NCBI GenBank assembly: GCA_963922205.1
Contig: CAWUHX010000045.1
Span: 1-64,000 of the forward strand
DNA: 64,000 nucleotides
Origin: Romanomermis culicivorax
Taxonomy: Eukaryota; Nematoda; Enoplea; Mermithida; Mermithidae
Reading direction: 5' to 3'
Each line of letters starts with the position of its first letter. Positions within the stretch are counted from its first letter, which is position 1. This document shows positions 2,640 to 42,433 of this stretch, piece by piece. The notes under the pieces are model-generated. The model saw only the letters and a program-made list of their open reading frames with translations. It searched no databases and was not told the origin of the DNA. Made by a program: the position numbers and the translations under genes.

Positions 2640-2990
2640 TGTGTCATGTTGTATAATAAACAAAAAATTCGATAAAATTTTTATACCAAGATTGAAACTG
2701 TTTGCTTTGTAATTTTTTATTAAAAGTTGGGAATGATTATTTTCAAATTGTTGTTCATATACAGAGACAACATCAGTTCCAGAAATTCGATCGTTTGTTG
2801 TCATTCATTAGACGATGACTTGGTTCCTTAAAATTTTCTTTTATCTCTCTTTTTCTTCTGCTTATATCAACTTGCTTTTCCCTTTGTTGGTTTGTCGCAT
2901 GATCTGTGTTTCTTATCCTGAAATTTCAACAAATAGAAAGTCACAATCGTCACATTAGGCTCTTATCCCGATGAACATATAGTTTTTATA
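2640..2990. other. AT-rich spacer
   Basis: I see no open frame of note, terminal repeat or duplicated block between the short-repeat cluster and the start of the 629-bp duplicated flank at 2991. Confidence 0.5.
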
Positions 2991-3619
2991 GAGAAAGAAT
3001 AAAAGAAGGAAGAGGTAGATGAAAAGAAGAAAAATGAATGAGAAAAGAAATGAGATGAAAAGAAACACAGAGAGAAGAAAAGGAAAAGAATTCAACAAAT
3101 AGAAGATTAAATAAGTGTAAGGAAAATGAAAAACACAACAAAATTTTCGAAAAATAAAAAAAAACTCTTGCGAAAGTGGGGATATACAACTAGCTCAGCC
3201 GAAATTTTTTGAGATGTATTCCCATGAGGACATTATTTTCAAGTATGATGGATGGACATGAGAAATGAATACACATCATAATGAATTCAAATGACAAACT
3301 ATGATCAGTGCGATAAGAAAGTATCAAAAACTGATTTATGATGATATTCAGGCAAATTGATACTGACATTATATTCAGGCAAATTGATACTGATACTGAC
3401 ATACACAACACTATCCCTAACATTATTTGGTCAGTGAGTTTTCTGACATGAACAGCAAACCAAGTCCAAAATACTTGCACGGTTAAAATGTTGTATAGCA
3501 CCTGTTAGAAGAAGAAATCTATGGAACGATCAAACACAGGAGATTGACAATTTATCCACAGAACGCCCCTTAGTCATTAAAGGTTTTCGGATGCCAAAAT
3601 TCGGAATGTTCTAGCTTAT
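2991..3619 (+). repeat. 629-bp flank duplication, left copy
   Basis: This segment abuts the first base of the left LTR of Ret-A and recurs at 12921-13548, immediately after the last base of the right LTR. The two copies differ at only about four places: an A-run length, GTGGGGATATAC against GTGGAGATAC, and two substitutions. A 27-base tandem repeat around GGCAAATTGATACTGA is included. The usual 4-6 bp target duplication is not visible at the LTR edges; this long duplication takes its place. Confidence 0.92.
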
Positions 3620-4514
3620 TGTAACGACCAGATTTGGTGTGTAGCACTTTACTTGGACCAATCGGTCGATACGGCGGGGCAAATACGGGACGGGGGCGCG
3701 GGCGAACGGTTACAATAAACAACGGTTAATCGACGGTCGCTTGAACGTCGACAAATAAAACGGGGGCGGCGCGGTTGCTTGCAAATAACAAAATACACGA
3801 CACGGTTTAATTGCTTTCGAAGACGGTTGCTTGCAAATGCGGGCGCGGGGTCAAAATAAAAACGATACAAGAACAAGAATCAGAATGATCAAAATCACGC
3901 TTTGCTTCTTCTTTTATATGGCGATTTTGGCCACTCCCTGGACGCTGCGGGAGGTCGAGCTTCTGTCCATCTTCTTCCGCCAATCGTCGTTTCCGGCTAC
4001 GCTTTTTATGCTTTCTTAATTACGCCTCTCTAATGCTTTTCTGGTACCGTATGCTTTCTGTGCTTCACTTGCTTTCTACGGTGGGCTTGGCCACACCTCT
4101 GTGCTTCTGTGCATGCTTCCTGTATCGGTTTCTCTGTATACACATGTTTTGTGGGGCCGCCGCTACCGTTACAATCGAGACTACTGTCTGGCGGGGCTTC
4201 TACGTATTTTACTGTGTGCAGGTGTTGTTTACGATTTTTACTGGGGATTACGGTAGCTGTGGAATGTGTAGTTTAGTGTGGGTTCTAGGGGAACAGCTGC
4301 CGTTTGTGCAAATTAATTAGGGCATCTTAATTGGGCTACCGGGGTGTGAACGGATCAAAATAAAGTACTTCACGTAATTTTGTAGGAATGCTTGGGTGTG
4401 AATCCCAGACATCCTTGAGACGATAAAATGTGAAAAATAAAATAATATCTAATAAATGTCTATTACATACAGTATGCTACATGTTTACAGTACTGCTTTA
4501 GCAGGTACGTTACA
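3620..4514 (-). repeat. Ret-A 3' LTR
   Basis: The 895-bp LTR starts TGTAACGACC and ends GGTACGTTACA on the plus strand, with TGTAAC/GTTACA terminal inverted repeats. In element orientation it is the downstream LTR. It contains a GC-rich block near 3660-3850 and an AT-rich block near 4380-4500. A 95-codon open frame on the antisense strand (4033-4320) is discussed among the rejected items. Confidence 0.95.
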
Positions 4515-4527
4515 TTTCCCTCCTTCC
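4515..4527 (-). promoter_or_regulatory. Ret-A polypurine tract
   Basis: Directly upstream of the 3' LTR in element orientation lies GGAAGGAGGGAAA, the purine run expected to prime plus-strand DNA synthesis. It overlaps the stretch just past the polyprotein stop. Confidence 0.8.
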
Positions 4528-4545
4528 GGAGTTGAACGTCCTCGT

Positions 4546-7500
4546 TCAAGGCTTTCGAGGTTGAGGAGGGGTGGAGGTAGATTCGATAGTTGCTTTCCGA
4601 GGGTAGAAAGGGGTTGTCTCGTTTACATGCACCGTAAATGTAATATTCTTATGGGGGTGTTTGAGTGTAACGTTGGGGTACATAAAATTTGTAACTGTAT
4701 AGGGCCCGTTTTGGCGAGGGAGGAATTTGGGAGTCAGCCCTTGTTTACACGAATGATTTTTGTAGAGAATAAGATCACCTGCCTTGTAATGTATGTTCTG
4801 AGCATGTTTGTTATACTGACGGGTATAGTGGGCTTGGGCTTTTTGCAAACTTTTCTGCACAGTTGAGAGTGATTCTGTGAAATGCGATTTTACACGGAGG
4901 GCGTAATCGTCTAAATCAACCATGTAGGACGTGGGGAAAAAATTTAAAGCTGCATCTGACGGCAGATTAGCTTGTCTACCGTGGAGTAATTCAAATGGGG
5001 GATATGATGTGCTATCATTTTTATGAATGTTGATCGAAAAAACGGCGTACGGGAGATAAGTATCCCAATCAGTGTGATTTGAATTGATGTACATGCGGAT
5101 ACGGGTGGCTAAGGTTTGGTTGCAACGCTCAACTTCCCCATTGGCAATGGGATGATATGGGGTAGTGTGAATTTTCTGAGTATTGCATAAACTGGTGATT
5201 CGTGAGAAGAGATCGGATACAAAATCGGTGCCACGATCACAATGGATGATTTTTGGGGACCCATGACGACAAACAATTTTGGTTACGAATAGCTTGGCAA
5301 TAGTGGCTGCAGTGATGTCAGGGGTCGGGAATGCCTCTACATACTTTGTGAAATAATCGATGAAAACGACAATGAATCGGTTGCCGTCTTCAGTGAGGGG
5401 TAACGGTCCCATGCAATCAACACCAACTCGATCAAATGGGCCAGTCGGCTGAATTGGTACCAAGTTTGCATGCACTTTGTGTCTAAGAGCTTTCTGTGTC
5501 TGGCATGGGTGGCAAGTTTTGCAGTAATGTTTGATATCACGGCTCATTTGGGGCCAAAAGTATTTCTGTCGGAGCAAGTGTAAAGTTTTCCGGGCTGCAA
5601 AATGACCTGTGAATTTGCTGTCATGATGTGAGGCGATGAGATGCTGGACTTGTGATTTGGGAATGTATAGTTTTGCTTGCTTGCCGACTATACGAAAGAG
5701 GATGTTTTGATGCACTGCGAATTTGATCAGAGTAAGGGGGTGCTTTTGGGCGATTTTTGCTAAAATGCTTTTCACAGTTGGATCAGTGCGTTGGAGTTCG
5801 GCGAAGTTTTTCTGTTGCTCTTCTTGTTCAGTTGCTTCGGCCTCAAGAACAGAATTGATGGTGGATATTTCGGGGGGGGGGGGGGTTTCTAATTGCTCAA
5901 TATCAAAGGATTGCTTTGCTGTCTGTGAGGGGAATCGAGAAACAGCATCTGCGTTGCGGTTAGCAGTGCCTTTCTTGGGTCGAATGTCGAGTTGAATACA
6001 AGAGAGGGCTAATCCCCAGCGGGCAATGCGAGGGGACGGGTTTTCCTTTTGTAAGACTGCCTGAACTGCTGTGTGGTCAGTGTGTACAATAACATGTTGC
6101 TGGAAAAGATAGGGGCAGAAATACTTGACAAATTCGACTACTGCAAGGGTTTCCAGTTCAGTGATTGGGTAGTTGCGTTCTGCGGGTTTCAATGTGCGGC
6201 TCCCAAAAGCAATGGGGCGATCCTGACCTTTACTATCTAGCTGGCTGAGAATGGCGCCGATTCCGAGTTTTGAGGCGTCAGTTTGCAGAATAAACGGTTT
6301 TGTGAAATCGGGATGCTGCAGTATTGGGGCATGAATGAGTAATTCTTTGAGCTTAGTGAATGCATTTTGCTGTTCGGGGCCCCAGGAAAATTCCGAATTC
6401 TTCTTGAGTAGCGATGTGAGTGGGCTAGAAACTTGAGAGCAATTTGGGATGAATCTGCGATAATACGAGGGTAGGCCAAGGAATGACTTAACCTCTTTTG
6501 AGCTTTTGGGTGTGGGTATGTCATAAATGGCCTGTACCTTATGGGGATCTGGTGAAATGCCTTGCTGGGAAATGACGTGGCCTAAGTATTGGACTTGGGG
6601 CTGGCAGAATTTGCATTTTTGTATGTTTAGCTTAAGGCCTGCTTGTGAGAATCGGGCAAGAATAGTGTCTAAACGTTCCAGCATTTGGGCATGGGAGTCT
6701 GCGAATACCAAAACATCGTCGAGATACACAAGGCATGTGTTCCATTGCAGACCCGAAAGAATAACATCCATTAACCTTTGGAATGTGGCTGGGGCATTGG
6801 TGAGTCCAAAGGGGAGGTAATTGAATTGATACTGGCCGGCTGAGCAATTAAAGGCCGTTTTTTCTCTGTCTGCTTGTGCTATGGGAATGGAATAGTATGC
6901 ATTGGATTGGTCAAGGGACGTGAAATATTTCATTCCACGGAGGGTGTCTAGAATTTCGTCTATGCGGGGCAGGGGGTATGTATCTTTTTTGGTTACTTTA
7001 TTGAGGCCTCTAAAATCAATGCATAAACGATGGCCTCCATCTTTTTTGGGAACTAAAACTGTGTTGGTACACCATGGGGAGTTGCTTTGGCTTATGACAC
7101 CTGCTGCTGCGAGTTGCTCAACTTCTGCTTGTATGATTTGCTTTTCTTTTGGGGACGTCCGATAAAGTTGTCTACGTACGGGTTGGGAGCCATTGGTGTC
7201 AATTGTATGTGAAACAAGGGTGGTTCTACCTACATCCATTTTGGGTTTAGCATATAATGTAGGGTACTTCGATAGGGCGCGTAGTAGTTGCATTTTCTCC
7301 GTTTCTGTGAGGTCACTGGAGGTTAAATTAACATTCTCTTTTAACCATGTGAATGTATCAAAACGGTTTGGCTGGTTTTGCGTTGAAGGGGTTAGATTAG
7401 CGGGAGCATTTTGTTTTGGGATGTAACAAGAGACTGTGCCAATGCATGTTCCAGGGTAAAGAATTTGAGCTGTTTCTTGTGTGTTTAGGACGGATATGCG

Positions 7501-10500
7501 TATGCGACTGTTTTGGTTTTCAGAGATACAAGCTGCGAAATGGACTTTGGGATTCTGTTTGGGTTTTGGGGTGAATTCAAGCTGTTTGACCTGTAAGTAC
7601 GATTTGGGCAAGGGGACAGTAAATTCGGTTACTGTACGGGGTGGTAATTCTAATTTCTCATCCAAATAAGTTCCACCATGAGTTGAAAGAGGGCTATATT
7701 CTAGGCCATCACAGGGTAGTATAACATTGCCAAATTTGACCTGTGATTTTTGATTGTTGATAGTGTATTCCGAAAATCGACTGAGAAAGTTTTTGCCTAG
7801 GAGGATGTCTGCGGTGCAATCTTTTTGGACATGGACCATGATTGTTTCCTGGATTGTTTGGGCTGTCACTGTGACAAAAGTGGTGCCTACAAAGTGAATC
7901 GGGAGATTATTTGCTGCTTTTGCTTGGACTAGCGGGGGTTTCATGTCTAACTTTAGGATTTGAGCGATTCGGGAATCAATGAGTGAGTAAACTGCACCAG
8001 TGTCAATCATGCCTTTTGTCATTAATTTGCCATTAAGTGTGATTGGAATATGAGGGGTATGTTTCTCAGGTACGTTTTGGGGTGGCTTATTTGATGCAGA
8101 TTGGTGAATTTGATTAATGAGTTCGATTGCAGGAGTTCGGGGGGTATCGATATCGACAAGGACGTATTTCTGCTGTGTTTGTGCCCCACGACGATTAGCT
8201 AATTCTAAGAGAGCATGGCCGAATGATGGGGGAATGGTCTCATGTAAATGTCTGTTGTTTGAAGGTATTTCGTATGCATGTTCGTTTGTGGCATGATGCT
8301 TTGGAGAGGGGAAATATTTTCGAAGAACGAGAAACAAATAAAAGATGCCTGCAAAAACTACAGTAATAACAGCTAGATTTATAATGATTTGCAGGGGTCC
8401 TTTGAGTAAATTGTTTAATCTGTCTGTGAGACTTTGGGTGGTACCGGTAATTACATGTTCTATGCCTTGACCGGCGCCAGAGAGTGTATTTCCAAGTGCT
8501 TGGCCAGTGCCTGAGATCATGTTGTAAACTGTATCGGAATTGAGAGACATTTGGGCGGTGTAATTGACGAGTTTTTTGACAATGTTTTGGAGTGTGTGAG
8601 TTTTGTAAATGTATTGTTTCAAAAAGAGTAGGTTGGTTGAAATAGTTGCAAGTTGATCATGAAAAATGGCGGGTGTATTAAAATGGAAAAGGGAGAAATT
8701 TTGGTTCCAGACGATTTCTAAAGGTAAATTTGTGACATGTGGGGATCCTGTTTCACTGACCCATGTATTATTCTGTTTGTAAAGGGCTACATGCATGTGA
8801 TGGCAGTCAACAGTTTGTGAAAAAGGGGTCAAATCGTTGCCTTCTGGGTTTGAAAACATGAGTTCGGTTCCTACGAGGATGGGCAAAAGTTTGTAGCATG
8901 TTTGGTTGATTTTGTGGTTGTAAAAGATTTTGGATGCGTTTACCTGCTTGCAGGGCCAGACTGTGAGGGCTTCTCCTGTGAATTCTGCTATGATGTCCGT
9001 TCGCTGTAGGAATGCACGTGCTCCAAGGGTTGCATCAAGACGTAAAATTTGCCATACGAGATCAAGGTGACGCTGTGCCTGTCTGCATAATTCACTCCAT
9101 ACGTTTTTGAAATTTTGAATTTCGAATTCCTGTATTTTGTCTGCTAGATAGTTTAGTTTTGCATTGATGGGTTCAAAATCATCAAAATCGTATAGTGTAG
9201 TATGAGTTTCATTGGTTTTTGGGGTTAAAAATGCATTACGATGTGGGGTGCTTTTGTCTAATTGTACGATAATGCCTTGTTCGGTTAGAATGCTGTCTTG
9301 GATTTCTGGGCAATTGGGGTTTGAAAAGAGTGTGTTTTTAACCGAAAATGCACCTTGTAGCTCTTCTATTATCATGTGGGTTGGCGTGAGTTTTATGGGA
9401 TGTGTATTTTTGTATTCGAAGGGGCATAAGTTTTCAAATGCTGTTTCATTCCAGATAATGGATCCGTCCACTGTTACACAATGACCTGATGTCAGTTTGC
9501 ATGACCCTAGGTCGCCTAATGTACCTGTCATAGATTTTCCATTCCAAGATGCTATTTGTCCTATTTCTATGATGACGTTAGTGACCGAGGTACAATGGTC
9601 TGTACAACACCATGTGTATTCTACGCTTAGGGAGTTATTTGTTGACCAAAATCCTGGTTGGGTTTCATATAATTTTTGACCATTGTGTTCTTTGTCTATA
9701 ACGATTGCCTTACAAACATGTGGGGTTAGATTTTGCATTTCGGTTTGGTCGAAGACAATACCTTTTGATCCAAAAAATCCTGTATTAGTACAAATTTTGC
9801 GTTTGCGAACACTGCATTTGTATGCGTCTGTAATGTGGGGCTTAGTGGAGGGGATATAGATTTTTCCGAATGTTTGTACGGGTTTGTCTACTGTGGAAGG
9901 GGGCATGCATGATACAAATTTTGGTATGCTGACTGAGTGACCGCTCAATGAAGTTCCACACATCTGAAATTGGGCGCTACACGATGTGGGGATTATTATA
10001 CATAAAAATATACAATACAATGGCCAATGTAGTGTTTTAGTGGAGGCGGCGGGGTACTGTGTTTTTTCGCTCTGCTCGATTTGGCGTGGCGGTTTTTGGT
10101 GTTGTCGTTTTGCGATTTTGAGCTGGGGGGGTGGCCGGTTTGAAATCTGAACGTTCTGTAAAACTTTAGAAGTTGAGTTATGGGATGGGGTTTGGACTTG
10201 CTTACTTATGAGGGTCGGTAGAAGTGTTTGGCGGGGGCGGAATTCGTAGGGTTCGGGGGTCAGGCCATGTAGAAGGGATAACAAGTTGCGGCCTGTTTTC
10301 GACGGGGTTTCGGGGGCGGTGGGCGGCGTAGTGTCTTGCTTTCGGGGGATCTTGTAGCCTACGGGGATGGTGGGCGGCGATTTTTCGGTTTTTGCGGCTT
10401 CAGGCGTGGGGGGTGGTGACATAGCCCACCAATCGGGTACGTCCAGATCAAGGACGTATTCGTCACTGCGGCGGTGGGTGTTGGGCATGATTGTTCCTAA

Positions 10501-10566
10501 AGTAGTCTGAGGGCCGTTAGTTATGGCGGGTAATTTTGAGTAAAATGCGGGGTCATCAATGTCCAT
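4546..10566 (-). CDS. Ret-A Env-PR-RT-RNaseH-IN polyprotein
   Basis: This 2006-residue frame encodes, in order: a proline-rich leader (1-175); a hydrophobic signal-like segment (about 179-197); a cysteine-rich ectodomain with many N-x-S/T sites, a CCTDHC motif near 320 and a Gly-rich stretch near 685-710; one transmembrane helix (about 724-747) and a polar tail; a protease with DTGA near 855; an RT with YLDD near 1281; RNase H (QTDAS near 1428); and an integrase with an HHCC finger (about 1647-1690) and D-D-E near 1717, 1777 and 1813. The chosen Met follows the ORF call, but the frame is open upstream through the zinc knuckles to about 10970. The glycoprotein is presumably released by signal peptidase or the viral protease, which would place the enzymes on the cytosolic side. 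The same glycoprotein family is present in Ret-B. I could not assign its fusion class. Confidence 0.93.
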   Translation of the reverse strand: MDIDDPAFYSKLPAITNGPQTTLGTIMPNTHRRSDEYVLDLDVPDWWAMSPPPTPEAAKTEKSPPTIPVGYKIPRKQDTTPPTAPETPSKTGRNLLSLLHGLTPEPYEFRPRQTLLPTLISKQVQTPSHNSTSKVLQNVQISNRPPPQLKIAKRQHQKPPRQIEQSEKTQYPAASTKTLHWPLYCIFLCIIIPTSCSAQFQMCGTSLSGHSVSIPKFVSCMPPSTVDKPVQTFGKIYIPSTKPHITDAYKCSVRKRKICTNTGFFGSKGIVFDQTEMQNLTPHVCKAIVIDKEHNGQKLYETQPGFWSTNNSLSVEYTWCCTDHCTSVTNVIIEIGQIASWNGKSMTGTLGDLGSCKLTSGHCVTVDGSIIWNETAFENLCPFEYKNTHPIKLTPTHMIIEELQGAFSVKNTLFSNPNCPEIQDSILTEQGIIVQLDKSTPHRNAFLTPKTNETHTTLYDFDDFEPINAKLNYLADKIQEFEIQNFKNVWSELCRQAQRHLDLVWQILRLDATLGARAFLQRTDIIAEFTGEALTVWPCKQVNASKIFYNHKINQTCYKLLPILVGTELMFSNPEGNDLTPFSQTVDCHHMHVALYKQNNTWVSETGSPHVTNLPLEIVWNQNFSLFHFNTPAIFHDQLATISTNLLFLKQYIYKTHTLQNIVKKLVNYTAQMSLNSDTVYNMISGTGQALGNTLSGAGQGIEHVITGTTQSLTDRLNNLLKGPLQIIINLAVITVVFAGIFYLFLVLRKYFPSPKHHATNEHAYEIPSNNRHLHETIPPSFGHALLELANRRGAQTQQKYVLVDIDTPRTPAIELINQIHQSASNKPPQNVPEKHTPHIPITLNGKLMTKGMIDTGAVYSLIDSRIAQILKLDMKPPLVQAKAANNLPIHFVGTTFVTVTAQTIQETIMVHVQKDCTADILLGKNFLSRFSEYTINNQKSQVKFGNVILPCDGLEYSPLSTHGGTYLDEKLELPPRTVTEFTVPLPKSYLQVKQLEFTPKPKQNPKVHFAACISENQNSRIRISVLNTQETAQILYPGTCIGTVSCYIPKQNAPANLTPSTQNQPNRFDTFTWLKENVNLTSSDLTETEKMQLLRALSKYPTLYAKPKMDVGRTTLVSHTIDTNGSQPVRRQLYRTSPKEKQIIQAEVEQLAAAGVISQSNSPWCTNTVLVPKKDGGHRLCIDFRGLNKVTKKDTYPLPRIDEILDTLRGMKYFTSLDQSNAYYSIPIAQADREKTAFNCSAGQYQFNYLPFGLTNAPATFQRLMDVILSGLQWNTCLVYLDDVLVFADSHAQMLERLDTILARFSQAGLKLNIQKCKFCQPQVQYLGHVISQQGISPDPHKVQAIYDIPTPKSSKEVKSFLGLPSYYRRFIPNCSQVSSPLTSLLKKNSEFSWGPEQQNAFTKLKELLIHAPILQHPDFTKPFILQTDASKLGIGAILSQLDSKGQDRPIAFGSRTLKPAERNYPITELETLAVVEFVKYFCPYLFQQHVIVHTDHTAVQAVLQKENPSPRIARWGLALSCIQLDIRPKKGTANRNADAVSRFPSQTAKQSFDIEQLETPPPPEISTINSVLEAEATEQEEQQKNFAELQRTDPTVKSILAKIAQKHPLTLIKFAVHQNILFRIVGKQAKLYIPKSQVQHLIASHHDSKFTGHFAARKTLHLLRQKYFWPQMSRDIKHYCKTCHPCQTQKALRHKVHANLVPIQPTGPFDRVGVDCMGPLPLTEDGNRFIVVFIDYFTKYVEAFPTPDITAATIAKLFVTKIVCRHGSPKIIHCDRGTDFVSDLFSRITSLCNTQKIHTTPYHPIANGEVERCNQTLATRIRMYINSNHTDWDTYLPYAVFSINIHKNDSTSYPPFELLHGRQANLPSDAALNFFPTSYMVDLDDYALRVKSHFTESLSTVQKSLQKAQAHYTRQYNKHAQNIHYKAGDLILYKNHSCKQGLTPKFLPRQNGPYTVTNFMYPNVTLKHPHKNITFTVHVNETTPFYPRKATIESTSTPPQPRKP

Positions 10567-10626
10567 GAGGGGTTGGGGTTGCCTGTACTCAATGCAATTT
10601 TGAATATTACGACTTTGCTGATTTGG

Positions 10627-10858
10627 ACAATATCTGCTTGTATGACCTCTTTGCTTGCATATAAAACATTGAAAATTTGAGTAGGGTTTTGAAATGCAGT
10701 TATCAGATCTATGTCCTGTTTGGGAGCAGTGGATGCATCTACTTTTACAATCACGCGTACTGTGATTATTACGGAAACAGATTTCACATGATTTTCGGGT
10801 ACCTACTGATTTACAATTGCGAGCTACGTGTCCGATTTGTCCACACTGGAAGCATGTA
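10627..10858 (-). CDS. Ret-A nucleocapsid: four CCHC zinc knuckles
   Basis: Four successive C-x2-C-x4-H-x4-C motifs are readable: CFQCGQIGHVARNC, CEICFRNNHSTRDC, CIHCSQTGHRSDNC and CFICKQRGHTSRYC. They are in the frame of the polyprotein, not of gag, although zinc knuckles normally form the C-terminus of Gag and bind genomic RNA. Most Ty3 elements have one or two; four is a large array. The frame change falls at a run of five C residues near 10958-10962, so either a -1 frameshift or a one-base indel links gag to this domain. Confidence 0.85.
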
Positions 10859-10930
10859 GGTTGCCTGGGGGTGGTATTGTTCCTGTAAGCATTATTCCTA
10901 CTGTAAGTGTTATTACTGAAATTGTTGTAG

Positions 10931-12088
10931 CTACTCTGTTGTGGGGGTTGAGGCTTTTTGTTTGATCTGCAACTGTAAATCTTTTACTTGTTGTTCTAAC
11001 TGATGCAAAAGGTCCTGTTGGTCTGTGTTTTTGGTTAGGGAAAAGATGGGTTCCGGTTTTGGGGGTATAAATGGAAGGGTGTTAGATTTCAACTCATTTC
11101 TAAGGATTTGCTGTTCAATGTAAGCTGCTTCATCTGACATTTCTTTTAGAGTCGCGAACCTTCTATACTTAATTGCTTCCCTGATTTCGTTTTGCATGCC
11201 TTCTACAAAGAGGGGTTTTATGATCATTTCTCGTGCGTCTGTGTTAAAGTTAGGATAGGCAAGGGTTGAGAGATGTTCTAGATCAAATAAGAATTCAGTC
11301 ACTGTTTCTGATCGCTTTTGTTTTCTTTCACGTAAGAATTGTTGATGTAGCTCATTATCTCTATTGTTTGGGAAAAATGCCTGTAATGCGACTTTATACT
11401 GCTCGTATGTGTGGGGAGGGTTTTCGGAATTTGCTAAACTTTTGAATTTTGCTAACGCGGCTCCTCCTAAATGAATTTCTAAACATGCCAACTTTAACTG
11501 TACGTCTGTATCTTTCATGCCTTGGAGTGCCATGAATTGTTCTAATCTTTTGTTCCATTCACCAAAATGTTGGGTCACGCCGCCCGTGAATACTGTAGGT
11601 TTCGCGTAGAAATTGTTTGCCATGTTATTACGAATGTTTGCTGTTCTTAGATCGTCTATTAGGGTAGGGTTTACTGTATTCTGATTCAATTGTGTGCGTA
11701 GGGTACGAAAATGTTCTGAAAATAAATCGTTTATCTGCTCTCTAACGATTTCTCCTAAATGATCTTGCGTTTGGTGGGTCATTCTTGGTTTACGTTGGGT
11801 TTTCTGCTTAAATGCTTCAATTTTTGCTTCACGCTGTATTCGTTTAAATGTATCGCTTAATGTCTCGTTGGAGGGGATTTCCAGTTTGCTTTCTATGAAT
11901 ACTGTCTTACTGTAGGAAATGATTACTACTGTATTATCTAATGCTTCTAAATGCCCGGATAAGAGTACACCTGATTGGGGGCTGGGAGTTCCACTGGTTA
12001 ACGTAACGGTACGGTCACCAAAATATGTAACGACCAGATTTGGTGTGTAGCACTTTACTTGGACCAATCGGTCGATACCGCGGGGCAA
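10931..12088 (-). CDS. Ret-A Gag (capsid)
   Basis: The 385-residue frame has a Ty3-type capsid core: FGEWNKRLEQFMALQGMKDT followed by QLKLACLEIHLGGAAL and a conserved C-terminal capsid helix region. It should form the particle shell in the cytoplasm. The C-terminus is a predicted coiled-coil (LLHQLEQQVKDLQLQIKQK). The first Met lies within the 5' LTR; a later Met near 11779 (MTHQTQDHLGEIV) is a more conventional start after the leader. The zinc knuckles are not in this frame but follow in the -1 frame. Confidence 0.88.
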   Translation of the reverse strand: MPRGIDRLVQVKCYTPNLVVTYFGDRTVTLTSGTPSPQSGVLLSGHLEALDNTVVIISYSKTVFIESKLEIPSNETLSDTFKRIQREAKIEAFKQKTQRKPRMTHQTQDHLGEIVREQINDLFSEHFRTLRTQLNQNTVNPTLIDDLRTANIRNNMANNFYAKPTVFTGGVTQHFGEWNKRLEQFMALQGMKDTDVQLKLACLEIHLGGAALAKFKSLANSENPPHTYEQYKVALQAFFPNNRDNELHQQFLRERKQKRSETVTEFLFDLEHLSTLAYPNFNTDAREMIIKPLFVEGMQNEIREAIKYRRFATLKEMSDEAAYIEQQILRNELKSNTLPFIPPKPEPIFSLTKNTDQQDLLHQLEQQVKDLQLQIKQKASTPTTE

Positions 12089-12920
12089 ATACGGGACGGG
12101 GGCGCGGGCGAACGGTTACAATAAACAACGGTTAATCGACGGTCGCTTGAACGTCGACAAATAAAACGGGGGCGGCGCGGTTGCTTGCAAATAACAAAAT
12201 ACACGACACGGTTTAATTGCTTTCGAAGACGGTTGCTTGCAAATGCGGGTGAGGGGTCAAAATAAAAACGATACAAGAACAAGAATCAGAATGATCAAAA
12301 TCACGCTTTGCTTCTTCTTTTATATGGCGATTTTGGCCACTCCCTGGACGCTGCGGGAGGTCGAGCTTCTGTCCATCTTCTTCCGCCAATCGTCGTTTCC
12401 GGCTACGCTTTTTATGCTTTCTTAATTACGCCTCTCCAATGCTTTTCTGGTACCGTATGCTTTCTGTGCTTCACTTGCTTTCTACGGTGGGCTTGGCCAC
12501 ACCTCTGTGCTTCTGTGCATGCTTCCTGTATCGGTTTCTCTGTATACACATGTTTTGTGGGGCCGCCGCTACCGTTACAATCGAGACTACTGTCTGGCGG
12601 GGCTTCTACGTATTTTACTGTGTGCAGGTGTTGTTTACGATTTTTACTGGGGATTACGGTAGCTGTGGAATGTGTAGTTTAGTGTGGGTTCTAGGGGAAC
12701 AGCTGCCGTTTGTGCAAATTAATTAGGGCATCTTAATTGGGCTACCGGGGTGTGAACGGATCAAAATAAAGTACTTCACGTAATTTTGTAGGAATGTTTG
12801 GGTGTGAATCCCAGACATCCTTGAGACGATAAAATGTGAAAAATAAAATAATATCTAATAAATGTCTATTACATACAGTATGCTAAATGTTTACAGTACT
12901 GCTTTAGCAGGTACGTTACA
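12026..12920 (-). repeat. Ret-A 5' LTR
   Basis: Same length and ends as the 3' LTR, with about six differences scattered along it (for example GATACCGCGG here against GATACGGCGG in the other). In element orientation it precedes gag. The bases just inside it read TATTTTGGTGACCGTACC; a TGGTGACCGTACC primer-binding site is possible but I cannot match it to a tRNA with confidence. Confidence 0.95.
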
Positions 12921-13548
12921 GAGAAAGAATAAAAGAAGGAAGAGGTAGATGAAAAGAAGAAAAATGAATGAGAAAAGAAATGAGATGAAAAGAAACACAG
13001 AGAGAAGAAAAGGAAAAGAATTCAACAAATAGAAGATTAAATAAGTGTAAGGAAAATGAAAAACACAACAAAATTTTCGAAAAATAAAAAAAAAACTCTT
13101 GCGAAAGTGGAGATACAACTAGCTCAGCCGAAATTTTTTGAGATGTATTCCCATGAGGACATTATTTTCAAGTATGATGGATGGACATGAAAAATGAATA
13201 CACATCATAATGAATTCAAATGACAAACTATGATCAGTGCGATAAGAAAGTATCAAAAACTGATTTATGATGATATTCAGGCAAATTGATACTGACATTA
13301 TATTCAGGCAAATTGATACTGATACTGACATACACAACACTATCCCTAACATTATTTGGTCTGTGAGTTTTCTGACATGAACAGCAAACCAAGTCCAAAA
13401 TACTTGCACGGTTAAAATGTTGTATAGCACCTGTTAGAAGAAGAAATCTATGGAACGATCAAACACAGGAGATTGACAATTTATCCACAGAACGCCCCTT
13501 AGTCATTAAAGGTTTTCGGATGCCAAAATTCGGAATGTTCTAGCTTAT
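12921..13548 (+). repeat. 629-bp flank duplication, right copy (628 bp)
   Basis: This is the second copy of 2991-3619 and starts at the first base after Ret-A. After 13548 the sequence continues into the LTR piece of Ret-C, so this copy is attached to the native right flank, while the left copy is attached to the native left flank. Confidence 0.92.
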
Positions 13549-22743: not shown

Positions 22744-24016
22744 TCAGCTGAAATTTTGGCTCGGAATGACTATATCATCATCTTCGTCATCGATTTCTCG
22801 AAAACTGATCTGGTTTTTCCAGGAGGGTGGAGAATTTTTCTCCTGATTAAAATCAGTGGGGTTGGAACTTAGATGCTCAGGGAGTACTGTAGGTTTCTGT
22901 TTCTTTTTTAATGAATTCATATGCATGAATTCTGATGGTGCCATTAGGTCTCCAGTTGGGCAGATAAGAGCATTGGGGTACTGTAGTTTCTCTATTGTGT
23001 ATGGTCCAGTCCATGGGAAAGTAACTTTGGGGAGTACCTAGGTTTCACGGTGAGATTAAATTTGAATACCTCATCTCCCTCGTTTATCTCAATTTCATGT
23101 AACTTTTTATCATATTGTGTTTTTTGTATGTTTTGTGCTTGTACGATATTTTCTTTTGCAGATTTCCAGGCTTCTGTAAGAAGCCTTTGAATGTTGGTGG
23201 CGTAATCCTGGAGCTTGATACGATATGGACTAGGAACAAACGTGAAGGCGGTGTCAATCGACAAATTTGGATGGCGGCCATAAAACAAGAAAAATGGTGA
23301 GTAGTATCTTGTAGATTGTTGTGAGGTGGTATTATAAGCAAAATAGGCATATGGTAGGTATAGATCCCAATCAGTGTGCCATGCATTAATGTACATAGAT
23401 AAACTTGTTGTTAAAGTTTTATTGAAACGTTCTACTAGACCATCAGTTTGTGGGTGGTAGGCAGTGGTATTAATTTTTCAAGTTCCACAAAGTTCAGAAA
23501 TTTTATGCATAAGTTCAGATAAGAAATTTGTGCCTCATTAAGATTAGAGACTAAGTGGTGCGCCAAAGCGAAGTACAATTTCTGTGGGAAAGGCATGAGC
23601 AGAGCTTTCTGCAGTGCCATTAGGGATAGCTACAGCTGTTGCGTATTTAGTTAGATATTCTGTAAAAACAATAATGTATTTATTTCCCGATCCACTCATG
23701 GGTAGAGGACCTAAAAGATCAACTGCTACTCGATCAAAGGGTCCCTGCACTGGTACAGGTACTAAAGAAGCTCTTGGTTTTTCCCAGCAGATTTTCTCTT
23801 TGTCCAGCTTATACATTTTTCGCAATGTTCTTTAACATCGTGATAAAGTGTACACCAATAATAATGTGTGCGTACTCTAGCCAAAGTTAGTAAAAAACCA
23901 AAATGTCCAGAAAAAACATCGTCATGGCAGGCTTCTAAAATTTCTTCACATAACTCGGGCGCTATAACGAGTTTTGGTTCGGGTGTTGTTCTCGTCTCCA
24001 ATGTAGTATAATACAC
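22744..24016 (-). pseudogene. Ret-B integrase
   Basis: The zinc-finger part (ACHDDVFSGHFG ... HCEKC) lies at 23800-23960, the catalytic Asp context FDRVAVDLLGPLP near 23720, the second acidic motif is damaged near 23540, and the Glu context HPQTDGLVERFNK lies near 23420-23455. The C-terminal part (22992-23396) includes YINAWHTDWDLYLPYAYFAY, close to the corresponding stretch of Ret-A. Two or more frameshifts break the gene. The last recognisable sequence is acidic (FREIDDEDDDIVI) and ends at about 22744. Confidence 0.85.
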
Positions 24017-24300
24017 ATTCTTTTACTAGAAATTTTTCTTTTGTGTTTAGAATTTATTGAATTTCTGCCAAGTCTGTGGGTAGATTATTGAGTAGAAATG
24101 CGATATTTAGAACAGAAAGGATCAGATTCTTGGAGTAGATGTATTCTATTTTGATTTTCTCTATTTTGATCAGTTGAGATCGCATTTTCATTTATCGCTG
24201 AGCATGTAGGAATATAACGAGAAAGAGCATAAGCGTTTTTATTTTTTTGGCCCGGCCTATGTTTAATAGTCAGTTCCTGAAAGTCTTGAAGAGCTAAACC

Positions 24301-25188
24301 TCAGCGTGCAATTCCACCTGAGGGGTTAAGTTTAGAAAAGACACTCTGAAGAGCAGAGTGATCCGTGTAAACTGTGATTTGTTGCTGATATAAATATTGT
24401 CCAAAATGTTTTACAGCCCATACGACTGCTAAGGCTTCCTGTTCAGTAACTGAATAATTTTTCTCAGATTTTGATAAGCTTCTGCTGCCAAATGCTATGG
24501 GTTGTTCCCCTTTATCAGTGATTTGTGAGAGAATGGCTCCCAATCCCATCAGTGTAAAGAATAAAAGGCTTGTGAAAATCAGGATGAATAAGTAAAGGTG
24601 AAGTAGTTAGAAGTTCTTTGAGTTTCTGAAATGATTGTTCACATTTTGTGTCCCAATTAAATTTTTGATTGAGTTTCAATAATTGGTGAAGTGGATTATC
24701 GATTTTCGCAAAATCTTGCATAAATCGTCTATAATAACTTGTGAGTCCTAAGAAACTATGTAACTGATCTACATTTTGTGGAGAGGGAAAACTTTGAACA
24801 GCCTTAACTTTGTTTTCGTCAGGTTTAATTCCTTGATCTGAAATTTCGTGTCCTAAGTATGAAATTTTTGTTTGTAGAAAGTGAAATTTTTCCAGGCGAA
24901 GCTTTAATCCAGCAGCATGGAGGTGGCGAAAATTTTCCTCGAGGAACCCCATGCTCGATCTAAGGTAGTGAAAAGAGTTGCGCCTTGAACGGCATCAAAA
25001 ATATCATCTATTCATGGTAGAGGATAACTATCTTTTTTGGTGACACCATTAAGTTTCCTATAATCTACACAAAACGTAAAACCTCCAGTTTTCTTTGGAA
25101 CTAAAACTACGGGACTTGTCCAGGGACTTTGGGGAGGTACGACCACTCCCTTTTGAAGCATTTTGTCAATTTCTTCATTGATTATTTC
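24301..25188 (-). pseudogene. Ret-B reverse transcriptase (palm deleted) and RNase H
   Basis: Fingers motifs are readable at 24960-25188 (VLVPKKTGGFTFCVDYRKLN) and break off after TLFTTLD near 24965. The sequence resumes at 24952 in the thumb region (LRLEKFHFLQTKISYLGHEI), so about 60 residues including the YxDD active site are absent. A connection and RNase H follow at 24301-24549 (EKNYSVTEQEALAVVWAVKH). Two in-frame TGA codons precede the deletion. It cannot be active. Confidence 0.85.
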
Positions 25189-26281
25189 TCATTGTTTATA
25201 GGGAACTCGATATGGAGCCTGGCGAATCAGCGTCGTGGGATCAACTTCGATGGAATGCCTGACCAGCGACATCCGGCCAACGTCATTATCATCATTGGTG
25301 AACAGTGCTGAATATTGAGTCAGCAAACTTTGAAATCGATATTGTTGGTTGTGGGTAAGATCCAATTTATTTAAATCAATCTCAGGATACTTAAAGTCTG
25401 CTAAGTTCGGAGTTAGTTGAGTCAGATTATTTGATGCAGTAGGCCTTAAATCAGATTCTAGTTGAGTATGACAGGCGGTAGGTGGTTCAGCAGGTGTCCA
25501 GGGTTGATGAAAAAATATTACTTTCCCGATTTTGGTTCCTGCATATAAGGTAACAGGTGATTCTCCAGTGTTTATGACACTGATTGGAATCAATCCCTCA
25601 TCAGGTGTCACTAAACAAGAGGTTACTTGTAAGTAAAATCTAGTCGTAAATTTTGGTAATGGTTCAAAAATTTGAGAGTCAAACTTTAAATAGGATGCTT
25701 CTAATCTTCCATTAATAATATTAAGTGAGCCAGGATGTAGATCTACAGTTTGATCTAGAGCTGGGACTCCTCTAGTCAAATCTGGTAAAAATATCTGAGG
25801 ATTTTTCAATGGTACTAAAAGTGAGCCAAATTCTACGCCAGCATTTTTCCATTGTATATCAGCCCTATTGAATCGTCATAGATAATCAGTACCTAATAGT
25901 AGATCATAAGTTGAGCCATCAACTATGTGTACTCGGAGAAATTCAGCAGAGGGAGCCCAAGCATGTTCTAAGGTTAAGGAAATCCTGATCCAACAAGATC
26001 CTACGACTTCTGTCAATTTAGTATTGAAAACTCGAAATCCTGGTATAGTGGCAGGTAAAATTTTGTAACCTCGCCTTTGAGCAAGTTCTAGGCCAATTAG
26101 AGAAATATCTGATCCACTATCAATCAGATTTACTATAGGCTGATTGTAATCTTCATTGAGCCAAATGTCAATAGTCGGACAGCAATCTTATTGCTCTGAT
26201 AAGTTGTGAGCTACTGTAGGAAGGTCTTCTGTATTTGTTTTTTCTTTCTTTCCTACTAGAGGTGAAAAAGCTTGAATCAGT
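25189..26281 (-). pseudogene. Ret-B protease and linker
   Basis: The retropepsin site reads NLIDSGSDISLIG near 26110-26150, and the flap-distal motif LLLGTDYL lies near 25880, followed by a TGA where relatives have a sense codon. The 25189-25809 frame (206 codons) is the linker up to RT and aligns with the Ret-A stretch around residues 950-1140. The upstream limit is the Merlin-like insertion. Confidence 0.82.
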
Positions 26282-26371
26282 AATTTTTGGGGCCAACTTA
26301 AAATTCCTACTTGTGCGTGAAAGAAGTGGTGTTTTTAAAAATACCATCAATGCATTTCAGATATAAATGGT

Positions 26372-26560
26372 ATTTCTGGTATTTTTTGGTGTTTTTGGTA
26401 TTTTATGGTGTTTTTGGCGTTTGTGGTATTTTATGGTGTTTTTGGTACTTTTTGGTATTTTATGGTATTTTATGGTGTTTTTGGTACTTTTTGGTATTTT
26501 ATGGTGTTTCTGGTACTTTTTGGTATTTTATGATATTTCTAGTAATGTTGCATATTTCAT
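26372..26560 (+). repeat. Merlin subterminal array, left
   Basis: About ten units of GGTATTTTATGGTGTTTTT with small variants (GGTACTTTTTGGTATTTTAT) follow the left terminus. They are in inverted orientation to the right array. Long open frames here (YFMVFLVF-type repeats) are products of the repeat, not genes. Confidence 0.85.
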
Positions 26561-26736
26561 TGGTATTTTGTCATTCGAATTTTTTGAGTAGTTTTATGGT
26601 AAAAAAATTTTTATAAAAAAACATACTTCAGAGGATGTACAAACCGTCATAATCTGTATACTTTCCATGGTAATGGAACAAGATTGTACAGAACATTACA
26701 ACATATAAACATATAGACATTTACTACAAAAATTGT

Positions 26737-27758
26737 TCAACTTTTCCACCAATCGGGCATGCTTTTGGCAAAGCTCAGCCAGGCTTCCCATATACTTCCT
26801 TCAGAGCTTTTGTGATTCTGACGAAAAGAAAATTCGTCTAGATGAGCAGATAAGCGTTCACAATTTTTAAGTCCATGCATGGATCCTATTCTTTGGCGTA
26901 TCAATCCCCACAAACCCTCAATAGTATTTGTATGTGCACCAGACTCTGCAACGAATTCCCGATTATGGAAGATGACATCATGTGTATAGCCTAAATCGTG
27001 AAGTTTCGTGTATGTTGCCAAGCCATCATGATAGATTTTTGTACTAGTTGGTATGTGTTTCTCGATCAAAGGCAATAAATTTTCCTTTGAAGCACTGTCG
27101 ATGAGGTACAAGACACATTTTCGACCTGATTTTTGAACTATACCGAACACTAGGTGTGTTTGCTTTGATGTACCTCGTTCGTTCTTTGCTTTTTTGCCCA
27201 TGAGGCTTTCATCCAATTCAACACTGACTTCTTCAGTACTGAGAAAACAAGCATCATCAAAAATGAGAGTATTCGAAATTAAAGCTTTTGACAAAGTGCA
27301 CGGAATTTCTCGTACCAAGTTAGTATAGTCTGATAGGATATTGTATCATTGCCAACCATTCTAACAGCAATATAAGCAGGAACATCGACTGCAAAAAAAC
27401 ACAGTAAGAGAATAATGTTTTCGATAGGCAGTTTGCTGCCTTGAAACACTGAACCATAGCGAATCGATTTTTGTGTGCAACATTGCGGACATTGCCATAC
27501 CTTTCCATCTGTCAGTTGTGACTTCTTTTGTAATTTCATAACACGAGGGCAACGCTCGCAATTGACCTCCTTTAGCAACAAATTGTTTTCAAATAAAAAC
27601 GCTAATGCCATGTCTTTGTCACTGCAAATTTTCATAATATCGAATAAATTCATTTCGTGATGAAATCTGATGAAGTAAATTTGTAGGTATATAAGCTTTA
27701 TTCTGGAAGCAAACATGAATGAATGATTCAAAATAAATAGAATGATTGCAAAATACAT
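26737..27758 (-). pseudogene. Merlin/IS1595-type DDE transposase, frameshifted
   Basis: The upstream frame (27279-27758, useful start MKICSDKDMALAF near 27638) has a zinc ribbon CERCPRVM ... WQCPQCCTQKS and the conserved ISXO2 segment ending TILTWYEKFRALCQ. The downstream frame (26737-27318, 193 codons) supplies the catalytic domain: first Asp in VELDESLMGKK, second Asp in YHDGLATY, Glu in HTNTIEGLWGLIR. The frames overlap but differ, with the switch near 27290 at a short A run, so one base is gained or lost there, or a tiny intron was missed. The protein would cut and join DNA at the terminal repeats. All three catalytic residues are kept, so the copy is recent or only just inactivated. Confidence 0.88.
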
Positions 27759-32489: not shown

Positions 32490-32807
32490 AACCATTTGAA
32501 TTTTGTTCTCAGTTTGCAGTGAAAATTTACCGCAGATGTGAAATTAAATATCTTTTGTTTCTAAATCAGATGCTGTAATACAACATGATTAATCTGGGCA
32601 GTCACAACTCATAATGCGTAAATATGTATAACTTCAGCAGATAAGAATAATGTAAAATTTCCTGTACGTAATTGAAAGTGACAGGAAAAACCAGAAAATA
32701 TTAAAAATGAAAAACCACAAACTTAAAATGGAGAAACACAGAGAAAACAAAAACAAAAAATAAGCAGAAAGTAAAAAATTTCGAAAAATAACATAGAATA
32801 TAAAAAA

Positions 32808-33100
32808 ACACCAAAAATACCATAAAATACCAAAAATACCATAAAACACCAAAAATACCATAAAATACCATAAAACACCAAAAATACCATAAAATACCAA
32901 AAATACCATAAAATACCAAAAATACCATAAAATACCGAAAATACCATAAAATACCAAAAATACCATAAAATACCAAAAATACCATAAAATACCATAAAAT
33001 ACCGAAAATACCATAAAATACCATAAAATACCAAAAATACCATAAAATACCAAAAATACCATGAAATACCAAAAAAACCAGAAAATACCAAAACCATCAA
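32808..33100 (-). repeat. Merlin subterminal array, right
   Basis: About fifteen units of ACCAAAAATACCATAAAAT, the complement of the left array, end some 120 bases inside the right terminus. The array is longer and more regular than the left one. Confidence 0.88.
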
Positions 33101-33250
33101 ACATACTGATATGTATGATTTATATATGAGTATAAATAAATTATTCTTTGAGTTACACGAGGCTACTAACTGAGACACCCTGTTCCGTATGTTTTCTATG
33201 GTGCTATGCTTAACCATACAAGTAGGAATTTTAAGTTGGGCCAATTTTTG

Positions 33251-40447: not shown

Positions 40448-41312
40448 TCAGGTAAGAATTCCAGAATTTTGTGTCATTTCCCTCAAATGTTCGAAAAATT
40501 GATTATGTCCCTTTGAGGAATAGTACCTATGAGATATAGAAAGTCTAACATGTTTTTTCCAATTCCTATTTCTTGTATGTAAACATGGAAAAATAAGAAA
40601 ATTTGTGAGATCTAATTTCATTTGAGTTCCCGTCGTTCATGTCAGTTCTCTTTGATTTTTAGAATTTTCTGAATGTAAATCAATCCAAGGCCAGTCTTGA
40701 GGAACAAGTCCTTGTTTATTTATACCCCATGTCTCTTGCATATTCAATGTTTTATCTCAGCTTTCTAAATCTGGATCCATTTCATAAGTAGCCCCTTTCC
40801 TCTCCATGGAGTTTTGATGGTCTGTGGTCCAACTTAATCCACCTTGGCAGGAATCTGAGTCAGTATCAAGGGTTAGATCACTGACCTCAGTGTAATTACC
40901 CATCAACGAATCAAAATGAAAATAGCTGCTTCTGCGCAAAGGTGGAGTGGTGGGCATCCCCTCACCACTCACTGACATGTAAAAACTGGTCAATTTATGG
41001 GGGCTTTTCAACAAAAGATCTATCTTGTGGACCATACAGACACCTGCGGGGGTCATTCCCAAGTCAGAATTTTCTTCATGAAGGGCATAGTCATCACAGT
41101 TCCAGGGATCATACTGGAATTCAGTGGGAGGACTAGCAGAATTGGTTGACCCTTCGACCCTGGCAGCAACTTGCTGACTATTGACTCTCTGCTGTATGGA
41201 TTGGGTCCTTCCAGGTTGCTGAGAGTTCGAAACACCACCTGAGCCAGGGGTTTGATCCCATGGTGATTCACCCCGCCACGTGTTACGGGTTAGATTCGAA
41301 GCTTGACCACTT
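40448..41312 (-). pseudogene. Ret-B gag-env linker
   Basis: Short minus-strand frames rich in Pro, Ser and Asp (for example the 40757-41062 piece with LTLDTDSDSCQGGLSW) occupy the position of the proline-rich leader of the Ret-A polyprotein. Sequence similarity is not evident. Confidence 0.45.
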
Positions 41313-42293
41313 CTATAGCTTACAGCATTCAGGCAGGCTGCATGGAAGTGCCCAATGCACCCACAGCGATAGCAGAGGTGCTTGACCTGAAAAATGGTTC
41401 CGGATATTTTGTTGGTTCAAATTTTGCATGCTTGGTCCGTTTCTCAAGTGTCTGCTTTGGGGAGGAGTAGATCTAAATCGAATATTCACGTAACCTTGGG
41501 GAGGTCTAAGGCGACTCCAAGGGATAATATTCCTAACCTGAGTACCTGTGGGTCTAAATGAGTTCAGGTTTGTCTCCAACCTGTTGGGTATCTGACTAGC
41601 CATGCTGACTGTGCTTAATCATCCTACTAGATGATCTAACTGATCTACAGTATTTGATAAAGTTTGTAAAGAAGGAGTAGATTGTCCGAGGCGATTTACA
41701 AAGTGATTTTTGATAATTATGTCATTCCCTCTGGCACCATCCCAATCAGGAAGTGCTCTTTTTGCTAAAGGTCGTATATCTCCAGCAAAAGATGACACAG
41801 TCTCAGTTGGCAGCTGAGACTGAGCAATCAGTTGCTCAGACTTAACAATTTGCCTATTATCAGGAAAATGACCTAAAAAGGCTGCAGACCATGCTTCCCA
41901 ATTTGGTAAAGCTGGGTGCCTATTTTCTAAAGTATAGAAAAATGTTAGAGCTGGTCCTCTCAGATATGCAGCATCAAGAAGTGCAGTTTTTCTAGCTAAT
42001 GATGTGGCTCCTGCTAAGACTGACATTCTTGAAAATCGTTTTTCTCATTCAGTCCAATTGATATCATTAGGATCTCCAGAGAAAGGTGTAAGATCTCCTA
42101 AATTCTGAGCGACAGGTCTTGTCTCATACATTCCTCCTACTCTCTGAACTGTTTTTCTCAGTAATTCCTGAACTTGATCTAGATCATGTGCCATTTTGTT
42201 TTCAGATAATAGATGAGATCGGCTATGGGTGGGACGATGTTGGTCAAAGTTGAAGCAGGTGTTGTCGACGATACAATCAAATTCGTGGATCAA
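41313..42293 (-). pseudogene. Ret-B gag with zinc knuckle
   Basis: The capsid frame 41619-42026 (LAGATSLARKTALLDAAYLR, then LIAQSQLPTETVSSFA) continues from an upstream frame 42045-42293, and a single in-frame TGA at 42045 separates them. Further down a zinc knuckle CYRCGCIGHFHAAC is readable at about 41340-41385 in another frame. Unlike Ret-A, only one knuckle is visible. Confidence 0.75.
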
Positions 42294-42433
42294 AGGTAAT
42301 TTATTTGGTTCTGTTATGGTTCAGATATTGATAGGAAAATCAGGCCAGAAATCTGTGGCTCAAGCTGATAATTATTTGATTTAGTTTTTGAAAAGAAATC
42401 CGAAAATTGCAGAAAGGGTCCAGCCCTACTGAG

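What the first reader, a model, noticed from the sequence alone, without database searches (positions are those of the whole stretch)
4546..10566. Envelope-like glycoprotein encoded between nucleocapsid and protease in one frame
Seen: one 2006-codon frame has a signal-like segment, a glycosylation-rich cysteine-containing ectodomain, a transmembrane helix, then DTGA protease, YLDD RT, RNase H and DDE integrase. Known: env follows pol in retroviruses and errantiviruses and is normally a separate or spliced gene. Inferred: this is a distinct retroelement lineage in which the glycoprotein is made as part of the pol precursor, so the enzymes would be tethered to a membrane until cleaved. Ret-B at 22.7-42.4 kb shows the same order, so it is inherited.
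Basis: partly seen in the sequence, partly recalled or inferred. Interest (0 to 1): 0.88.

Follow-up and report, generated by a model that had tools for sequence, protein, structure and literature searches.

The report
Retroelement with envelope inside its polyprotein
A virus-like jumping element carries its membrane-fusion (envelope) protein in the middle of one long protein, between its capsid part and its copying enzymes, instead of as a separate gene at the end, and many diverged copies keep this order.

Summary
The 2006-codon frame (4546-10566, minus strand) encodes a class III fusion glycoprotein (Pfam Monjiviricetes_fusion, E 9e-19; profile and fold matches to herpesvirus gB) between a four-knuckle nucleocapsid and Ty3-type protease-RT-RNase H-integrase, inside 895-bp LTRs 99.3% identical. 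It is not a local accident. The host genome (359 Mb) holds at least 104 near-identical RT copies and five further lineages (env 34-64% identical between lineages). Env lies directly before protease in 16 of 16 short-frame copies examined. In 14 of 20 hand-picked copies capsid, nucleocapsid and env share one unbroken frame, so the family's plan appears to be a single Gag-Env-Pol polyprotein; in this copy the capsid part is in another frame. Four proteins from other sources show the same env-protease fusion; one starts in gag. Env is under purifying selection about as strong as pol. I infer a polyprotein that passes the membrane twice, with Pol as the fusogen's cytoplasmic tail; RNA processing was not testable. 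Class III envelopes in Ty3/gypsy elements are known; my searches found no paper on this order, but the main survey (Chary and Hayashi 2025) was not available to read.

The parts
12026..12920 (-). 5' LTR, TGTAACG...CGTTACA
   Evidence: 895 bp, 99.3% identical to 3620-4514
12001..12020 (-). primer-binding-site-like stretch just after the 5' LTR (primer tRNA not identified)
   Evidence: read
10931..12088 (-). gag capsid part, in a different frame from env-pol in this copy
   Evidence: Retrotrans_gag 1.1e-5, Ty3_capsid 3.7e-4
10627..10854 (-). nucleocapsid, four CCHC zinc knuckles, in the env-pol frame
   Evidence: translation of 10567-10983; knuckles in the same frame as env in other copies
10030..10566 (-). 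hydrophilic leader between nucleocapsid and signal segment
   Evidence: the 1.5-kb stretch before env is the least conserved part between lineages
9973..10029 (-). signal-peptide-like hydrophobic segment
   Evidence: a hydrophobic segment at the matching place lies in the open frame of 19 of 20 related loci
8413..9972 (-). class III fusion glycoprotein ectodomain
   Evidence: PF24664 E 9e-19; 8 of 8 members of A3; gB chains in PDB
8311..8412 (-). transmembrane helix
   Evidence: mean hydropathy up to 2.57 at residues 719-752
7777..8049 (-). retropepsin, DTGA
   Evidence: gag-asp_proteas 1.2e-8
6571..6957 (-). reverse transcriptase, YLDD part
   Evidence: RVT_1 2.3e-32; Ty3 polyprotein 4.2e-73
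6001..6384 (-). RNase H
   Evidence: RT_RNaseH_2 4e-38, RT_RNaseH 1.7e-36
5149..5664 (-). integrase H2C2 and rve core
   Evidence: 2.4e-21 and 3.4e-9
4515..4527 (-). polypurine tract
   Evidence: GGAAGGAGGGAAA directly before the 3' LTR
3620..4514 (-). 3' LTR
41060..42302 (-). Ret-B gag and nucleocapsid (decayed)
   Evidence: 47-55% to the gag of L044
33454..40282 (-). Ret-B env, split by a LINE (35560-39306, +)
   Evidence: 55-78% to env of L018/L025 in pieces; LINE
23019..26127 (-). Ret-B protease, RT, integrase pieces

Best explanation
A Ty3/gypsy-type LTR retroelement lineage that makes Gag, Env and Pol as one polyprotein: capsid, nucleocapsid, internal signal sequence, class III fusogen ectodomain, transmembrane helix, protease-RT-RNase H-integrase. 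SHOWN: the order and shared frame, their conservation over six lineages in this genome and in proteins from elsewhere, class III identity, purifying selection on env. INFERRED: the internal signal sends the chain into the ER; signal peptidase frees the ectodomain's N-terminus; the TM helix returns the chain to the cytosol, so Pol starts life as the cytoplasmic tail of the fusogen, and Gag stays cytosolic, anchored by the signal segment until cut. Particles would gather at membranes with Gag, Env and Pol delivered together, and the element's protease would free the enzymes. This is the layout of flavivirus/HCV core-E1 polyproteins (recalled), used by a retroelement.
For: One frame: 2145 open codons here. 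71 of 104 RT copies lie in frames of 2400 aa or more (env inside those frames was not checked copy by copy). 14 of 20 hand-picked upstream stretches run unbroken from the frame's first Met through CCHC into env, and in 5 of the other 6 the pieces share the frame. 17 of 20 loci have no stop from the signal segment to the protease, and 19 of 20 keep both hydrophobic segments in one open stretch. Elsewhere: P0013 is gag (weak match), CCHC, signal, Env, TM, protease in one 1500-aa protein; P0006 and P0015 carry Env, protease and the start of RT. Selection: env dN/dS 0.07-0.42 in 13 of 14 close pairs (the other had no synonymous change), PR-RT 0.06-0.38 in 10 of 10 (pairs share sequences). Env and PR-RT diverge together: 64/63% and 61/64% in two cross-lineage pairs. 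No NPGP (2A) motif in 25 sequences; no strict splice donor-acceptor pair in the six stretches scanned.
Against: No RNA, protein or particle data. The splice scan is crude. P0014 begins with its own Met and signal peptide, so in some lineages Env-Pol may be a separate frame. In the window copy capsid and env-pol are in different frames, and the only upstream stretch taken from the L013 lineage is broken by stops. The 20 upstream stretches were not a random sample. Equal amounts of Gag, Env and Pol are unusual for a particle that needs excess Gag (recalled).
Confidence: 0.65

Rival explanations
1. The frame is one on the DNA but not in the message: splicing removes env to make Gag-Pol, or joins a leader to env, so the full fusion is a minor product.
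For: Errantivirus env is made from a spliced RNA (recalled). Donor-like sites exist before env in three of six stretches scanned (L013, L015, L025).
Against: No strict donor before env in the window, L012 or L018, and no strict acceptor in the TM-to-protease linker of any of the six. An intron would not need every codon between TM and protease to stay open, yet 17 of 20 loci are open there.
Confidence: 0.22
2. Gag is made alone and Env-Pol starts separately (internal start or frame change), so the precursor is Env-Pol, with its own signal peptide.
For: P0014 starts Met-signal-Env-TM, then a protease-like region. In the window copy gag and env-pol are in different frames.
Against: 14 of 20 hand-picked copies are unbroken from gag into env. 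P0013 from another source is one protein from gag to protease.
Confidence: 0.25
3. Env is a passenger or decaying insert of no use to the element.
For: Some copies have stops in env (L004, L006, L026).
Against: Env dN/dS like that of pol; 13 Cys invariant in eight rows 36-56% identical to the window; env DNA present in 16 of 16 short-frame copies, in one only its last 177 bases.
Confidence: 0.03
4. A chance insertion or assembly error at this one locus.
For: The long duplicated flank is odd.
Against: 40 of 40 scored env DNA matches at 97-100% across the genome; independent lineages and other sources.
Confidence: 0.005

Closest known systems
Errantivirus and other envelope-carrying Ty3/gypsy elements (EMBO Rep. 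2026, PMC13172572, passages read; Chary and Hayashi 2025 not held)
   Same: Ty3/gypsy pol, LTRs, a viral glycoprotein; [quoted passage not shown]
   Different: In the passages read GAG, POL and ENV are separate, tandem ORFs; here env lies before protease in the same frame
Anakin (BEL/Pao with chuvirus glycoprotein, PMC7642597; passages and two sections read)
   Same: class III glycoprotein of a negative-strand RNA virus type captured by an LTR retroelement
   Different: BEL/Pao pol; the place of the glycoprotein is not stated in the text I read; here the RT is Ty3-like
Herpesvirus gB and Mononegavirales/Jingchuvirales glycoproteins
   Same: class III fold by profile and low-confidence model
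   Different: there a separate gene (recalled), here in the middle of a polyprotein
Flavivirus/HCV-type polyproteins (recalled)
   Same: capsid, internal signal, membrane glycoprotein, then enzymes in one chain
   Different: unrelated proteins and replication

Membership tests
Ty3/gypsy (Metaviridae) LTR retrotransposon | pol order PR-RT-RH-IN with Ty3-like RT | tested here: met
   Ty3 polyprotein is the best solved relative of the RT piece, 4.2e-73
Ty3/gypsy (Metaviridae) LTR retrotransposon | TG...CA LTRs, PPT, PBS | tested here: met
   primer tRNA not identified
Ty3/gypsy (Metaviridae) LTR retrotransposon | 4-6 bp target site duplication | tested here: inconclusive
   this copy is flanked by a 634-bp duplication instead; other copies not examined
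Errantivirus | env gene downstream of pol | tested here: not met
   pol stop at 4546 abuts PPT and 3' LTR; env upstream of PR
Errantivirus | baculovirus-F-type envelope | tested here: not met
   class III instead
Anakin (BEL/Pao) | BEL/Pao pol | tested here: not met
   Ty3-like RT; no BEL/Pao-specific Pfam family among the matches (their names recalled)
Troyka | CG...CG termini and 3-bp TSD (PMC12440569, abstract and part 1 of 5 read) | tested here: not met
   termini TG...CA
Class III viral fusion protein | sequence and fold match to gB / Monjiviricetes fusion family | tested here: met
   PF24664 in 8 of 8; gB profile hit 2.5e-5; the 50 rows shown of 524 Foldseek matches are all gB, from a low-confidence model
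Class III viral fusion protein | membrane fusion activity | not testable with these tools
   no experiment

The most novel reading that the evidence does not exclude
An old, widespread lineage of retroelements that makes all its proteins as a single Gag-Env-Pol chain threaded twice through the membrane, and packages its enzymes as the cytoplasmic tail of the fusion protein. That would be a third way to get Pol into particles, beside the Gag-Pol fusion and the separate Pol of foamy viruses.
Probability: 0.5. Interest if true: 0.88.

Novelty: new variant of a known kind. Interest (0 to 1): 0.78.

Why it matters
In the retroviruses and env-carrying retrotransposons I know of (recalled), env is a separate gene after pol, which lets it be made in its own amount. 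A lineage that has a class III fusogen fused between Gag and Pol, and kept it fused while env fell to 34-64% identity between lineages, breaks that rule and offers a new answer to how Pol is packaged. Because the env sits inside a gag-pol frame, surveys that expect a third ORF could miss it: one survey of Jingchuvirales glycoprotein relics saw Gypsy fragments beside them in insects but reported no clear capture by Gypsy (PMC10084718, three of five parts read).

Tried and rejected
Structure: a first model with 2 sequences was useless (pLDDT 31); the second with 5 reached only 53, so fold matches rest on local similarity (TM about 0.26) and support the profile result but do not stand alone. Viral contigs: no match to the env. 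Solved structures by single sequence: none; the profile was needed. Chuvirus origin: not claimed; the nearest predicted folds are glycoproteins of several negative-strand virus groups, chu-like ones lower in the list, with gB and entomopoxvirus proteins among them. Ribosome skipping (2A) between parts: no motif. Programmed frameshift between gag and env-pol: considered because this copy's frames differ, dropped because 14 of 20 other copies are in one frame. Anakin's layout could not be settled from the text. Host species not identified. How many pol copies of the wider group lack env was not measured: the wider searches of the genome did not complete.
Full report
WHAT IS THERE. On the minus strand at 3620-12920 lies an LTR retroelement. 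Its LTRs (895 bp, TGTAACG...CGTTACA) differ at 6 positions; a polypurine tract and a PBS-like stretch sit where expected. The reported frame (4546-10566) is open from 10983, 2145 codons in all, against a longest open run of 223 codons in 200 shuffles. Searched in pieces, it holds a class III viral fusion glycoprotein (PF24664, E 9e-19), retropepsin, RT, two RNase H models and H2C2/rve integrase. The part before the ATG is a nucleocapsid with four CCHC knuckles. The pol stop abuts the polypurine tract and 3' LTR, so no gene follows pol here.

THE GLYCOPROTEIN. A profile of eight env pieces from six lineages (A3) matches herpesvirus gB chains in the PDB (best E 2.5e-5; the six best rows are gB, one of them listed as ORF8), over the central part only. 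Each of the eight matches PF24664, and six match the gB family. A model from five sequences has low confidence (mean pLDDT 53), yet all 50 PDB rows shown (of 524 matches) are herpesvirus gB (best E 6e-12, TM about 0.26), and the best viral rows are mostly glycoproteins of nyami-, orino-, xinmo-, rhabdo- and chu-like viruses (group names partly recalled). 13 cysteines are invariant over the eight rows. The ectodomain is bounded by a signal-like segment and a TM helix.

NOT A LOCAL ACCIDENT. The window lies in a 359-Mb assembly of 595 contigs. An env DNA piece has 40 of 40 scored matches at 97-100% (1002 candidates, so a lower bound). The RT piece has 104 of 104 scored matches at 98-100% (8319 candidates); 71 of 104 lie in open frames of 2400 aa or more. 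I took 16 of the 17 RT matches whose frame is under 1600 aa, as the likeliest to lack env: in 16 of 16 env DNA ends where protease DNA begins, 14 with full env, one cut by the end of the fetched stretch, one with the last 177 bases only.

DEEP CONSERVATION. Searching with P0006, a protein from another source, gave 41 scored places (of 8247 candidates): all 41 have an env match and, 0.1-0.4 kb downstream, a protease match. The query begins with env, so this shows linkage among env-bearing places and does not count pol copies without env. Among the 20 places made into loci the env falls into five lineages; with the window there are six, and P0006 forms a seventh cluster (34-64% identity between clusters). 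No stop lies between signal segment and protease in 17 of 20. I picked 20 upstream stretches by hand, 4 of the window's family and 16 from the places, many of them for their long frames: 14 are unbroken from the frame's first Met through CCHC into env; in 5 of the other 6 the broken pieces share the frame. The unbroken ones include the window's family and the L009, L015, L017 and L019 lineages; the single L013-lineage stretch is broken. Of three of these stretches given to Pfam, two match gag families and all three a zinc knuckle. So the family plan appears to be one Gag-Env-Pol frame. In the window copy the capsid part sits in another frame from nucleocapsid-env-pol.

OUTSIDE THIS GENOME. Three protein searches of 5.8 billion sequences found four relatives with env and protease in one chain: P0006 and P0015 (Env, protease, start of RT), P0014 (signal peptide, Env, TM, then a region that aligns through the protease and holds a DSGS motif, without a Pfam protease match) and P0013 (gag, CCHC, signal, Env, TM, protease; the gag match is weak, 0.0017). 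Their best-scoring blocks are 26-40% identical to the lineages here. The other hits of these searches list no PF24664 among their domains.

SELECTION AND HISTORY. In 14 close pairs env dN/dS is 0.07-0.42 in 13, and undefined in one without synonymous change; PR-RT is 0.06-0.38 in 10 pairs. The stretch before env is looser (0.33-0.87). Some pairs are so close that few changes stand behind a ratio, pairs share sequences, and of the seven other window-family loci three with stops (L004, L006, L008) were left out. Two cross-lineage pairs show env and PR-RT diverging together (63.8/62.8% and 60.9/63.5%); there synonymous change is saturated. Identity of window RT to the lineages falls in step with env. 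A small RT tree groups the ten env-bearing rows (95/93) apart from six rows in which no env was seen, several with long branches.

RET-B. It keeps gag, env, protease, RT, integrase in that order, decayed and split by a LINE. It is nearest to the L017/L019/L058 group (RT 72-85% to L058, env 55-78% to L018 and L025), so it supports inheritance across lineages, not within one family. The LTR at 43933-44822 is 76-82% identical to the first element's LTR and is probably a solo LTR.

HOW IT LIKELY WORKS. Shown: order, frame, conservation, class III identity, selection. Inferred: an internal signal puts the ectodomain in the ER, the TM helix brings the chain back, and Pol begins as the fusogen's cytoplasmic tail; signal peptidase and the element's protease separate the parts. 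No 2A motif separates them, and no strict splice pair was found in six stretches, but that scan is crude. P0014's own signal peptide at its start suggests that some lineages make Env-Pol apart from Gag.

WHAT IS KNOWN. Dezordi 2023 (PMC10084718, three of five parts read) found Gypsy pieces next to Jingchuvirales glycoprotein relics but no clear capture by Gypsy. Dezordi 2020 (PMC7642597, passages and two sections) describes Anakin, a BEL/Pao element, and puts the env of Roo, Tas and Cer-7 after pol. The 2026 EMBO Reports paper (PMC13172572, passages) says gypsy and BEL elements both have type III glycoproteins and calls env-carrying gypsy elements ancient. Chary and Hayashi 2025 (eLife) is not held and was not read. 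A text search for gag-env-pol and four related phrases found no paper; broader ones showed none on this order in the titles and abstract starts listed, which for searches were a part of the papers found. Class III env in Ty3/gypsy is therefore known; the fused internal position looks new, with that reservation.

CHECK.

Noticed in passing
window 2986-3619 and 12916-13548: A 634-bp stretch flanks the element on both sides as a direct repeat (98.9%) meeting the LTR ends exactly. Of the matches listed in the genome only these two are 99-100% alike, others 68-86%: a very long target duplication.
   Followed up: partly
L053, L055, L057, L058 (downstream of pol): Four copies of two related env groups carry an extra ORF of 460-642 aa after pol, 28-36% alike between lineages. 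Pfam DNA_pol_A_exo1 (3'-5' exonuclease): 2.5e-4 in L058 (under the cut-off), 0.17 in L055, none in L053; DEDDy-like motifs by eye. DEDDy exonuclease ORFs are known in rotifer retroelements (PMC5408684, passages).
   Followed up: partly
L009-L014: Two of the six lineages lack the D-T/S-G protease motif found in the others; L012, the one read, has DCG at the active site.
   Followed up: no
P0015: Recorded as a Desulfobacteraceae MAG protein but carries the env-protease-RT fusion; probably a misplaced eukaryote contig (inference).
   Followed up: no
P0014: Starts with its own Met and signal peptide followed by Env, TM and a DSGS protease-like motif: a possible separate Env-Pol frame.
   Followed up: partly
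window 61268-63644 (+) and 20399-18734 (-): Other Ty3-type pol pieces with no env match nearby in the window.
   Followed up: no
window 35560-39306 (+): A LINE with a 1248-aa open frame (endonuclease, RT) inside Ret-B's env.
   Followed up: no
window 26737-27758 (-): IS1595-like DDE transposase domain (2.3e-21) and a weak HTH_48: a DNA transposon inside Ret-B.
   Followed up: no
window 32698-33118 and 26357-26601: Tandem array with a period near 9.6 bases and an inverted relative 6 kb away.
   Followed up: no
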